Part shown: piece by piece, positions 21,140 through 43,998 of the stretch | Numbering within the stretch: position 1 is the stretch's first letter | Layout: each line of letters starts with the position of its first letter | Source: Shouchella miscanthi | Lineage (GTDB): Bacteria; Bacillota; Bacilli; Bacillales; Bacillaceae_D | Reading direction: 5' to 3' | DNA: 64,000 nucleotides | NCBI RefSeq assembly: GCF_007725405.1 | Contig: NZ_CP042163.1 | Span: 248,001 to 312,000, forward strand | Made by a program: the position numbers and the translations under genes | The notes under the pieces: generated by a model | Databases searched by the model: none | The model's input: the letters and a program-made list of their open reading frames with translations, nothing else | Told to the model about the DNA's origin: nothing

Positions 21140-21164
21140 AATCTTGTATGGTTGGATAAGACTC

Positions 21165-21322
21165 ATACAAAAAGCGCCAGGACTGACATGAGGTCAGTTG
21201 ACGAGGAGAGGGCTAATCGATAATCGGCGGGTTCCCTCCGGCTGCGTGTGACAGCCGTAAGCTTTTGTAAAAAACAGTAAGGTGACTTAGTGTACAAAAA
21301 CAAAAGCCGCACACACATACAA
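21165..21322 (+). ncRNA. glmS glucosamine-6-phosphate riboswitch ribozyme
   Basis: The core is plainly recognisable: the cleavage site A|GCGCC at 21174/21175, P1 GGACTGAC/GGTCAGTT, the conserved GACGAGGAGAGGG, ATAATCGGCGG, the GGCTG...CAGCC stem with GTAAGCTTTT, and AAGGTGACTTAGTG. A CACAC segment near the 3' end can pair with GTGTG for the pseudoknot. Glucosamine-6-phosphate bound as cofactor triggers self-cleavage and lowers glmS mRNA. The 3' boundary is estimated. Confidence 0.95.
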
Positions 21323-26086: not shown

Positions 26087-26115
26087 AGAAGCAGGTGTTC
26101 ATCTGCTTCTTTTTT
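26086..26115 (+). terminator. Terminator after the LCP gene
   Basis: AAGAAGCAG (starting in the stop codon) pairs with CTGCTTCTT, then TTTT. Confidence 0.85.
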
Positions 26116-26142
26116 CATGATTATCGAAAATGGAGGGCTGGA

Positions 26143-26655
26143 ATGAGGAAGTTAGAGTTCAAACCATATTGTGAGGATTGGAAACAACAATTTGAAAGTG
26201 AAAAGAAAAAAATCGAGAATGTATTAGGCGATCGTATCTTGGCCATCCATCATATTGGAAGTACGTCTATACCTGGAATGTTGGCTAAACCGACGATTGA
26301 TTTACTAGTAGAGGTAACGTCTATTCAATCAATCGGTGAAGAGTTGTGTGTGCTTGGTTATGAATCATTGGGGGAAAACGGTATAAAAGGAAGGAGATTC
26401 TTCCTTAAAAGCGAAGAAGGAAAAAGGACTCATCATGTACATCTCTTTGAAAACGCTTCAGATGAAGTCGAGCGACACTTGGTATTTAGAGATTATCTCA
26501 TTGCTCATAAGGAAGAGGCGGTTCGCTATGCAGCCGTAAAAAAAGAATCAATGGCATTGGGACTTAGTGTTGACCAGTATCAGCGAAAGAAATCATCTCT
26601 TGTAGAACAATTAACGAAACGAGCATTGAGATGGGTAAAATCTCGTGAAAGTTGA
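26143..26655 (+). CDS. GrpB family protein (nucleotidyltransferase-fold)
   Basis: 170 residues spanning the full GrpB (UPF0157) domain: YCEDWKQQFESEKKKI, AIHHIGSTSIPGMLAKPTID (the nucleotidyltransferase-like GST...D motif), RTHHVHLFE and HLVFRDYLIAH. The family resembles minimal nucleotidyltransferases and is sometimes fused to dephospho-CoA kinase; its reaction is not established. GGAGGG precedes the ATG at 26143; upstream in-frame codons overlap the LCP terminator. Confidence 0.85.
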   Translation: MRKLEFKPYCEDWKQQFESEKKKIENVLGDRILAIHHIGSTSIPGMLAKPTIDLLVEVTSIQSIGEELCVLGYESLGENGIKGRRFFLKSEEGKRTHHVHLFENASDEVERHLVFRDYLIAHKEEAVRYAAVKKESMALGLSVDQYQRKKSSLVEQLTKRALRWVKSRES

Positions 26656-28343: not shown

Positions 28344-28348
28344 TGAAA

Positions 28349-28592
28349 CGCTTAGAATGAGAGGAGTAGGAAGCAAACATTGTTAAGAGAGCTGCCGGTT
28401 GCTGGGAAGGCAGACAATGAATCTTCTGAAGTCGCTTATGAGTGGCTAAGCTGAAAGAAAAGTAAGCTTAGACGGATGGTAAGGCCAATCGTTAAAAAAA
28501 TGAGTTTTGTATACGGTTTATACAAATAAAAAAGAGTGGTACCACGTTAGGAGAAACCCCTATCGTCTCTAAAGAGACATAGGGGTTTCTTT
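28349..28592 (+). ncRNA. T-box leader in front of a GNAT acetyltransferase gene
   Basis: Stem I begins at CGCTTAG (28349) with the conserved AATGAGAGGAGTA motif and closes at CTAAGC. The T-box bulge AGTGGTACCACG lies at 28535-28546. A strong terminator follows: AAACCCCTAT ... ATAGGGGTTT with inner GTCTCT/AGAGAC (28554-28590), then TTTATT. Uncharged tRNA would favour the antiterminator and switch on the downstream gene. My best specifier reading is GUC (Val), in GAA-GTC-G next to the AAGC/GCTT helix, but the alignment in that loop is uncertain. Confidence 0.85.
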
Positions 28593-28612
28593 ATTAGAAG
28601 GGAGCAATCTAG

Positions 28613-29155
28613 ATGAGCGTAATTGAATTGACTACGAACCGACTCAAACTACGGTTATTTCAAGAGGAGGAGGCTGAACATATTGCGGCACTTTGTAACA
28701 ACTATGCCATCTATCGATCGACGTTGACGATGCCATATCCGTATACAGTAGATGATGCACGGCTTTGGATGAAGAATCATCGGAAAAATATTGAGCAGGA
28801 TAAACGGTATGAACTGGCGGTTACGTGTCAAAAAAGTGACATGCTTTATGGTGCGATTATGTTAAATCCGAACTATCAGCACAAGCATGGGGAGATGGCA
28901 TATTGGATTGGTGAACCGTATTGGGGAAAGGGCTACGGAACAGAAGCATTGAGAGCGATGATCGATTTTGCTTTCATTGAGAAGAACTTACACCGAGTGT
29001 ATGCTCGTTATTTTAAATCAAATCCCGCATCAGGAAGGGTTATGGAAAAGGCTGGAATGACAAAAGAAGGTGTCTTAAAAGATCATGTGTATAAGGAAGG
29101 TGCGTTTGAAGATCTTGTTTATTACGGAATGGTTAATCCAACGTATACCGCGTGA
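28613..29155 (+). CDS. GNAT N-acetyltransferase (RimJ/RimL-like), T-box controlled
   Basis: 180 residues of the acetyltransf_3 (RimJ/RimL/YdaF) type: TNRLKLRLFQEEEAEHIAAL at the start, AYWIGEPYWGKGYGTEALRA (acetyl-CoA loop), RVYARYFKSNPASGRVMEKAG (motif B) and a KEGVLKDHVYKEGAFED ending. Relatives acetylate N-termini of ribosomal proteins or small amines. AAGGGAGC precedes the ATG at 28613. The only control visible is the T-box directly upstream, which ties expression to charging of one tRNA. The substrate is unknown. Confidence 0.85.
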   Translation: MSVIELTTNRLKLRLFQEEEAEHIAALCNNYAIYRSTLTMPYPYTVDDARLWMKNHRKNIEQDKRYELAVTCQKSDMLYGAIMLNPNYQHKHGEMAYWIGEPYWGKGYGTEALRAMIDFAFIEKNLHRVYARYFKSNPASGRVMEKAGMTKEGVLKDHVYKEGAFEDLVYYGMVNPTYTA

Positions 29156-43643: not shown

Positions 43644-43736
43644 AAGAGAATCCTCCTTTTTAAGTGATTATTTTATTTTATCATTTTCACTTATGGAAGT
43701 TGATTTTTATGAGGAAATCTTATAAAGTTTAGGTAG

Positions 43737-43998
43737 ATGAGCGTAGATGGAGAGTAAGTACATTGGTGGCGTTACTGAAGAGAGCTAGTGGTTGGTGTGA
43801 ACTAGTGTAGCGTGCGAATGGAATGGACTTCGGAGCTTCCTTGCTGAACGTTTAGTAGGCGAGGCGGACGTCTTACCGTTAAAAAAGACAGCGTATCAGA
43901 GCCAGACTCTCGTACGTATTGGAGTGCGTTTCAATGATGAAGCGAACAAAGGTGGCACCACGGGTTATCCGTCCTTTTTGGATGGATAGCCCTTTTTC
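43737..43998 (+). ncRNA. T-box leader of trpS (tryptophan specifier)
   Basis: Stem I carries AGATGGAGAGTA. The specifier reads GAA-TGG-A (UGG, Trp) next to the AAGTACATT/AATGGACTT helix. The T-box bulge AAAGGTGGCACCACG lies at 43948-43962. The terminator GGGTTATCC/GGATAGCCC plus TTTTT spans 43962-43997. Uncharged tRNA-Trp would favour read-through into trpS. The 5' end is approximate. Confidence 0.92.

What the first reader, a model, noticed from the sequence alone, without database searches (positions are those of the whole stretch)
28349..29155. T-box riboswitch controlling a lone GNAT acetyltransferase
Seen: a full T-box leader (AGTGGTACCACG bulge, stem I motif, strong terminator) sits 20 bases before an acetyltransferase gene. 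Known: T-boxes nearly always control aminoacyl-tRNA synthetases, amino-acid biosynthesis or transport. Inference: the enzyme may act on an amino acid, an aminoacyl product or a ribosomal protein when one tRNA is uncharged. The specifier looks like GUC (Val), but the loop is ambiguous.
Basis: partly seen in the sequence, partly recalled or inferred. Interest (0 to 1): 0.7.

Follow-up and report, generated by a model that had tools for sequence, protein, structure and literature searches.

The report
Valine-tRNA switch controlling an acetyltransferase gene
A real tRNA-sensing RNA switch, tuned to the valine tRNA, sits directly in front of a lone acetyltransferase gene, and the same pair is found in four lineages of bacilli, which ties this enzyme of unknown substrate to valine-tRNA shortage.

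Summary
Window 28344-28573 is a full T-box leader (RF00230, 117.9 bits, cut-off 93) with a terminator, 20 bases before a RimJ/RimL-type GNAT gene (28613-29155). The specifier is GUC (valine): it sits where GUC sits in the genome's own valS leader, a tRNA-Val(GAC) gene exists, and its discriminator A fits the UGGU bulge. The pair is not a fresh accident. Homologous leaders with the same specifier precede orthologous GNATs in a second Shouchella species (same locus), another genus of the family and another family of the order (different surroundings): 5 of 56 orthologues examined. These leaders resemble each other far more than any of 28 other T-boxes compared, group as the genes do and show compensatory changes; they are no recent copies of the valS leader. 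S. oshimensis lacks the leader. In streptococci a different RimJ/RimL-type GNAT lies between a Val T-box and valS. The protein model resembles RimL and MccE, which acetylate aminoacyl-adenylates. My leading guess is protection against valyl-adenylate-like inhibitors or valine analogues when tRNA-Val is uncharged. Regulation is well supported by computation; the substrate is inference.

The parts
28344..28573 (+). T-box leader (RF00230), model positions 1-219
   Evidence: cmscan 117.9 bits, E 1.9e-25; homologous leader before the orthologous GNAT in 4 other genomes
28431..28433 (+). specifier GUC (valine), followed by G28434 and the closing helix CUUAU
   Evidence: position in the RF00230 alignment; same GUC-G before the closing helix in the own valS leader; invariant in G009, G020, G201
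28537..28540 (+). UGGU of the antiterminator bulge, expected to pair with the tRNA 3' end ACCA
   Evidence: sequence; single tRNA-Val(GAC) gene, discriminator A, CCA not encoded (sequence, acceptor stem read by eye)
28550..28592 (+). intrinsic terminator hairpin, overlapping the 3' half of the antiterminator
   Evidence: RNAfold -27.7 kcal/mol on the 3' part, and hairpins at the same place in the four other leaders; whole-leader fold. The simple terminator scan did not list it
28597..28605 (+). Shine-Dalgarno region GAAGGGAGC
   Evidence: sequence reading; the 23 bases before the start codon are 96% identical in S. oshimensis, which lacks the leader
28613..29155 (+). GNAT N-acetyltransferase, 180 aa, RimJ/RimL/YdaF type
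   Evidence: PF13302 115.8 bits; NCBIfam RimJ model 53.1 bits, below its cut-off of 190; AlphaFold model pLDDT 96.4, Foldseek matches

Best explanation
This is a transcription-antitermination T-box specific for tRNA-Val(GAC) that switches on one RimL-type GNAT gene when that tRNA is uncharged. Stem I reads the anticodon through GUC, the UGGU bulge tests the free 3' end, and an uncharged tRNA stabilises the antiterminator so that transcription passes the terminator into the GNAT. By my reading of the 17 leaders of this genome (one, L015, unclear) the Val T-box regulon is valS plus this GNAT. Shown by computation: leader, specifier, tRNA gene, terminator, and the leader kept with the gene in several genomes. 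Inferred: that the switch works as T-boxes do. More loosely inferred: that the enzyme acetylates the alpha-amine of a compound that blocks valyl-tRNA formation (a valyl-adenylate-like inhibitor or a valine analogue), so that blocked charging induces its own relief.
For: RF00230 match of 117.9 bits. GUC lies in the same place as in the own valS leader, with one tRNA-Val(GAC) gene. The leader-GNAT pair is kept in G009 at the same locus, and in G020 and G201 in other surroundings; the GNAT is the only gene I found common to all. Leaders are mutually similar (scores 65.5-109) against at most 31 for any of 28 other T-boxes, and pair up as the genes do. In three helices 98.5% of cells pair and 4 of 17 pairs change on both sides. 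In Streptococcus another RimJ/RimL-type GNAT has a T-box motif upstream in 29 of 30 loci and a ValRS motif in the same locus in 22 of 30. The model resembles RimL (TM 0.82-0.85) and MccE (0.83-0.84). RimL and MccE are said to acetylate aminoacyl-adenylates with little preference for the amino acid (PMC3817062, passages).
Against: 51 of 56 orthologues examined lack the leader, including S. oshimensis at 95% identity, so the enzyme does not depend on it. No promoter above chance was found before the leader (5 sites in the region against a mean of 4.3 in shuffles), and the leader match starts right after the stop codon of the preceding gene. The fold match covers the whole RimJ/RimL/YdaF group and SpeG too and does not single out adenylate detoxification; the best single-sequence PDB matches are SpeG enzymes. 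Streptococcal T-boxes often have other small genes before the synthetase, which weakens that parallel. T-boxes before genes with no evident link to amino acids are on record (17 genes in PMC2494555, passage). No enzyme or transcript data exist here.
Confidence: 0.45

Rival explanations
1. Same switch, but the enzyme acetylates the N-terminus of a ribosomal protein or translation factor (as RimL and RimJ do), adjusting translation when valyl-tRNA runs short.
For: Best NCBIfam matches are RimJ (53.1 bits), SpeG (46.7) and RimL (41.4); solved RimJ-, RimL- and YdaF-type enzymes are at the top of the fold search.
Against: All three NCBIfam scores lie far below the equivalog cut-offs of 190, 218 and 184. 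Presence in 64 of 397 sampled genomes of the order at E <= 1e-40 is patchy for a housekeeping modifier.
Confidence: 0.2
2. The leader is a chance capture: a T-box landed before a GNAT, and the enzyme has nothing to do with valine or tRNA.
For: The leader is missing from 51 of 56 orthologues. GNATs are numerous: this query alone has 16 matches in this genome.
Against: The pair persists in four lineages in three different settings with the same specifier, with compensatory changes and with leader grouping congruent with gene grouping.
Confidence: 0.15
3. The enzyme acts on free valine or branched-chain intermediates as part of amino-acid metabolism.
For: Most T-box targets are amino-acid or synthetase genes (PMC2494555, passages).
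Against: A starvation-induced enzyme that consumed valine would worsen the shortage; I saw no biosynthetic or transport gene common to the four settings.
Confidence: 0.1
4. The enzyme acetylates valyl-tRNA or mis-charged tRNA-Val itself, as GNAT toxins acetylate aminoacyl-tRNA (recalled).
For: Sensor and putative substrate would share the same tRNA; inference only.
Against: The family is PF13302; no small partner gene is common to the four settings in the ORF lists.
Confidence: 0.05

Closest known systems
T-box leaders of aminoacyl-tRNA synthetase genes, e.g. the own valS leader (L002)
   Same: RF00230 architecture, GUC specifier followed by G, antiterminator against terminator
   Different: The gene controlled is a lone GNAT; the leader sequence is no closer to the valS leaders than to unrelated T-boxes
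Streptococcal Val T-box - GNAT - valS arrangement. Wels et al. 2008 (PMC2494555, section 15 read) list S. pneumoniae spr0489 and S. thermophilus str0474 as Val T-box 'Val-tRNA ligase related hypothetical'; that spr0489 is this GNAT is my guess, not checked
   Same: Val T-box (specifier read by eye as GUU) upstream of a PF13302 GNAT
   Different: Different GNAT (31% identity over 112 residues) lying before valS; here the GNAT stands alone
RimL and MccE, which acetylate processed microcin C and other aminoacyl-adenylates (PMC3817062, passages)
   Same: Fold (TM 0.82-0.85 and 0.83-0.84); MccE also appears in the profile search, E 1.6e-15
   Different: About 20% sequence identity in the structural alignments; not T-box controlled as far as I know (recalled); substrate of this enzyme unknown
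SpeG polyamine acetyltransferases
   Same: Best single-sequence matches in the PDB search
   Different: Poorer structural fit (TM about 0.71-0.76) and below the NCBIfam cut-off

Membership tests
T-box leader (RF00230) | covariance model score above gathering threshold | tested here: met
   117.9 bits against 93
T-box leader (RF00230) | specifier codon matching a tRNA of the host | tested here: met
   GUC; tRNA-Val(GAC) gene in L159. The shifted reading UCG has no tRNA-Ser(CGA) among the 77 tRNAs found
T-box leader (RF00230) | UGGN bulge complementary to the tRNA discriminator | tested here: met
   UGGU with discriminator A; weak on its own because wobble would also allow G
T-box leader (RF00230) | mutually exclusive antiterminator and terminator | tested here: met
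   terminator hairpin found by folding; antiterminator pairing from the covariance model alignment, one of its pairs non-standard; CGUCUCU takes part in both
T-box leader (RF00230) | induction by uncharged cognate tRNA | not testable with these tools
   needs transcript measurement
RimJ/RimL-type GNAT (PF13302) | Pfam curated cut-off | tested here: met
   115.8 bits against 25.4
RimJ or RimL proper (NCBIfam equivalogs) | equivalog cut-off | tested here: not met
   53.1 against 190 and 41.4 against 184
Aminoacyl-adenylate-detoxifying acetyltransferase (RimL/MccE function) | fold of the RimL/MccE group | tested here: met
   Foldseek TM 0.82-0.85 for RimL, 0.83-0.84 for MccE; not specific to this function
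Aminoacyl-adenylate-detoxifying acetyltransferase (RimL/MccE function) | acetylation of an aminoacyl-adenylate or its sulfamoyl mimic | not testable with these tools
   needs an enzyme assay

The most novel reading that the evidence does not exclude
T-box leaders can serve as alarms for inhibitors of a given aminoacyl-tRNA synthetase: when ValRS is blocked, tRNA-Val loses its charge and the T-box turns on an acetyltransferase that disarms the inhibitor. The Val leader here, the streptococcal Val T-box-GNAT-valS arrangement and a Lys T-box before another GNAT in one Shouchella genome would be separate inventions of the same circuit.
Probability: 0.25. Interest if true: 0.8.

Novelty: new variant of a known kind. 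Interest (0 to 1): 0.55.

Why it matters
A T-box reveals which tRNA a gene serves, so a leader kept with one enzyme family gives a handle on a GNAT whose substrate cannot be read from sequence. It turns a vague annotation into a testable claim: this enzyme is wanted when tRNA-Val is uncharged. If it protects ValRS, it would be a tRNA-sensing, self-limiting form of intrinsic protection against synthetase inhibitors.

Tried and rejected
Leader as a recent copy of the valS leader: rejected; the score is 9 with the G009 valS leader and lower with the own one, where unrelated own T-boxes score 4.5 at the median and 33 at most. Leader left behind by a deleted synthetase or transporter: rejected, since the pair recurs in three different settings. 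Specifier shifted by one base (UCG, Ser): rejected by its position relative to the closing helix and lack of a tRNA-Ser(CGA). Promoter search before the leader: nothing above chance. GNAT relatives in genome contigs: a strict motif scan of 80 loci found no T-box before the GNAT, one motif inside a gene (L032) apart; cmscan of 22 of these 80 at the gathering threshold found no T-box. NCBIfam model ileS_w_GNAT, a weak match of the two streptococcal GNATs scanned: 0 of 299 genomes of the phylum pass its cut-off, so that fusion gave no help. E. coli yjgM, a GNAT near valS, is parted from it by yjgN on the other strand. Literature: five searches that join T-box with acetyltransferase or with inducible resistance showed me no paper on a T-box before a lone GNAT, but one search listed 15 of 30 papers and one search listed 8 of 133, and most hits were seen as listings only. 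Passages were seen of PMC2494555, PMC7778990, PMC3766115, PMC3817062, PMC4964394, PMC4342826 and PMC5670726, and one section of PMC2494555. Two further searches on IleRS-GNAT and RimL were listings. Vitreschak 2008, Gutierrez-Preciado 2009 and Kazakov 2014 are not held. TBDB entries themselves were not seen and may include these leaders.

Full report
What is there. The window lies in a 4.25 Mb genome. The closest named orthologue of its GNAT is in Shouchella oshimensis, 95% identical, so I take it as a Shouchella species. cmscan finds a complete T-box at 28344-28573 (117.9 bits, cut-off 93, E 1.9e-25) and a second one, with UGG, at 43735-43979 before a trpS-like gene. The leader is followed by a terminator hairpin at about 28550-28592, a Shine-Dalgarno region and a 180-residue GNAT gene at 28613-29155. 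The leader match begins right after the stop codon of a DUF4190 gene; promoter-like sites in the region are at chance level, so the promoter is unknown.

Specifier. In the RF00230 alignment the stretch after GAA is GUC-G, then the closing helix CUUAU. The same genome's valS leader reads GAA-A-GUC-G and then its closing helix. GUC therefore sits in the same place relative to the helix. Of the 17 T-boxes of this genome I read GUC, by eye, in these two only; one (L015) is unclear. ARAGORN finds one tRNA-Val(GAC) among 77 tRNAs (71, 6), which are all the tRNA places that one search listed. Its acceptor stem leaves A as discriminator (sequence, read by eye), which pairs with the U of UGGU. The shifted reading UCG would need tRNA-Ser(CGA), and none is among the 77.

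Does the leader belong to the gene? I looked upstream of 56 GNAT orthologues of 50% identity or more, found in the genus, in 41 genomes of the family and in 397 sampled genomes of the order: the window, 11, one, 20, 19 and 4 by motif only. Five carry a T-box: G000 (the window), G002 (same species, 115.1 bits), G009 (same genus, 65% identity, 97.9 bits), G020 (another genus of the family, 61%, 115.8 bits) and G201 (another family of the order, 60%, 127.5 bits). G009 has largely the same gene order as the window (TraB-type gene, DUF6366, leader, GNAT, regulator with an ArsR-type HTH, MFS-like protein), but no DUF4190 match. G020 and G201 have the pair in other surroundings. Of four window proteins tested there (DUF6366, DUF4190, GNAT, TraB) only the GNAT finds a match. 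One exception to 'other surroundings': in G020 a GrpB-like gene, 41% identical to the window's 26095-26655, lies just upstream; G009 and G201 lack it in the stretches fetched, so the GNAT is the only gene I found common to all four settings. All four distinct leaders keep GAAGUCGCUUA. Their pairwise alignment scores are 65.5 to 109, against at most 31 with any of 28 other T-boxes (the 16 others of G000 and 12 of the 19 others of G009); 120 pairs of the other own T-boxes reach at most 33. The leaders pair up as G000 with G009 and G020 with G201, as the genes do in the tree (groups supported 95/90 and 82/83). The first group also holds S. oshimensis and the second two orthologues, all without leader, and both groups lie in an unresolved fork of 28 rows, so one origin with several losses and transfer of the pair both remain possible.

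Structure under selection. On four distinct leaders three helices give 98.5% standard pairs and a covariation score of 0.480 (shuffles 0.288, 0 of 500 as high; slid versions at most 0.157). Four of 17 pairs change on both sides; 22 of 500 shuffles reach that, and 84 of 500 reach the number of further pair types. The helices were named from the first sequence, which favours them somewhat, and four sequences are few.

Loss. In S. oshimensis (L018, the same place as in G004) the leader is gone. About 1.6 kb of 29% GC (window 40%) lies between the DUF4190 stop and the last 23 bases before the GNAT start; blastn finds no other leader fragment there. DUF4190 itself matches in two frames there. The two small open reading frames of the insert match no family above a cut-off. 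At 51 of 56 loci the gene lives without the leader, so T-box control is an optional overlay on this enzyme.

Parallel cases. In S. oralis (G013) a T-box (49 bits, below the cut-off; specifier read by eye as GUU, Val) precedes a GNAT, a hypothetical gene and valS; in S. uberis (G014, 58 bits, below the cut-off) a GNAT also lies between T-box and valS. In 49 of 59 sampled Streptococcus genomes the GNAT is present at E <= 1e-25; of the 30 loci returned, 29 have a T-box motif upstream and 22 a ValRS motif within the locus (motif searches, not covariance model). The two GNATs scanned share PF13302 with the window's; that of S. oralis has 31% identity with it over 112 residues. Wels et al. 2008 listed Val T-box 'Val-tRNA ligase related hypotheticals' in streptococci (PMC2494555, section 15), so that part is probably already noted. 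In one Shouchella genome (G012) a T-box of 102.5 bits, whose specifier I read as AAA (Lys), precedes yet another GNAT; of 30 loci of that GNAT family looked at by motif, only this one has it. Streptococcal synthetase leaders often have other small genes before the synthetase, which warns against reading too much into position alone.

The enzyme. Pfam PF13302 at 115.8 bits; NCBIfam names RimJ, SpeG and RimL only far below their cut-offs. The AlphaFold model has mean pLDDT 96.4. Foldseek ranks a RimL-like Vibrio protein, RimJ and 1nsl (YdaF, name recalled) first; TM-scores are 0.82-0.85 for RimL, 0.83-0.84 for MccE, 0.84-0.85 for 3fbu and about 0.71-0.76 for SpeG. By single sequence SpeG enzymes rank first; the profile search puts 3fbu and 1nsl first and includes MccE at 1.6e-15. 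So it is a RimL/YdaF-type amine acetyltransferase of unknown substrate.

Mechanism. Regulation by uncharged tRNA-Val follows from the established T-box mechanism and is well supported (I put it at about 0.93). For the substrate I commit, with low confidence, to protection of valyl-tRNA synthesis: RimL and MccE are reported to acetylate and so inactivate a broad range of aminoacyl-adenylates (PMC3817062, passages; partly given there as unpublished data). A tRNA-Val sensor is the right trigger for an enzyme that removes an inhibitor of ValRS, and the streptococcal GNAT beside valS points the same way. Modification of ribosomal proteins is the main rival. Nothing here measures transcription or activity.

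Novelty. The leader is an ordinary member of its family, and T-boxes before genes without an evident amino-acid link are on record (17 genes in PMC2494555, passage). The kept pairing with a lone GNAT is what I did not find in print in the searches named. TBDB entries were not consulted and may list such leaders automatically.

Noticed in passing
window 43735-43979: Second T-box (127.5 bits) with specifier UGG and bulge UGGC before a trpS-like gene; ordinary Trp leader.
   Followed up: yes
window 21162-21316: glmS ribozyme (113.9 bits).
   Followed up: no
L015 (G000:C1:3644439-3644718, minus strand): T-box of 90.9 bits, just under the cut-off, before an MFS-like transporter gene; specifier unclear, CAA or ACA by eye.
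   Followed up: partly
L183 315-566 and L210 (G012): T-box of 102.5 bits, specifier read as AAA (Lys), before a GNAT of another subfamily; 1 of 30 loci of that GNAT has the motif.
   Followed up: partly
L018 4360-5975 (S. oshimensis): 1.6 kb insert of 29% GC with two small open reading frames of unknown family stands where the T-box is in the window, between the upstream stop codon and the ribosome-binding region.
   Followed up: partly
L180 (G001) and L181 (G005): Two T-boxes in tandem, 39 and 27 bases apart, before a gene that looks by eye like thrS.
   Followed up: no
L145, L151, L152, L153, L198 (Streptococcus): Other small genes (by eye kinase-like, GNAT, Gfa-like, unknown, maa-like) sit between T-boxes and thrS, valS, glyQ or alaS.
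   Followed up: partly
L199 2040-2250 (G020): Array of repeated units of about 51 bases right after the GNAT gene.
   Followed up: no
L201 1174-1258 (G037): Group II intron match (56.9 bits) before a GNAT orthologue that is matched only from residue 33 on.
   Followed up: no
L208 6712-7287 (G020): GrpB-like gene just upstream of the leader-GNAT pair, 41% identical to the window's GrpB-like gene 26095-26655; possibly a trace of shared surroundings.
   Followed up: no
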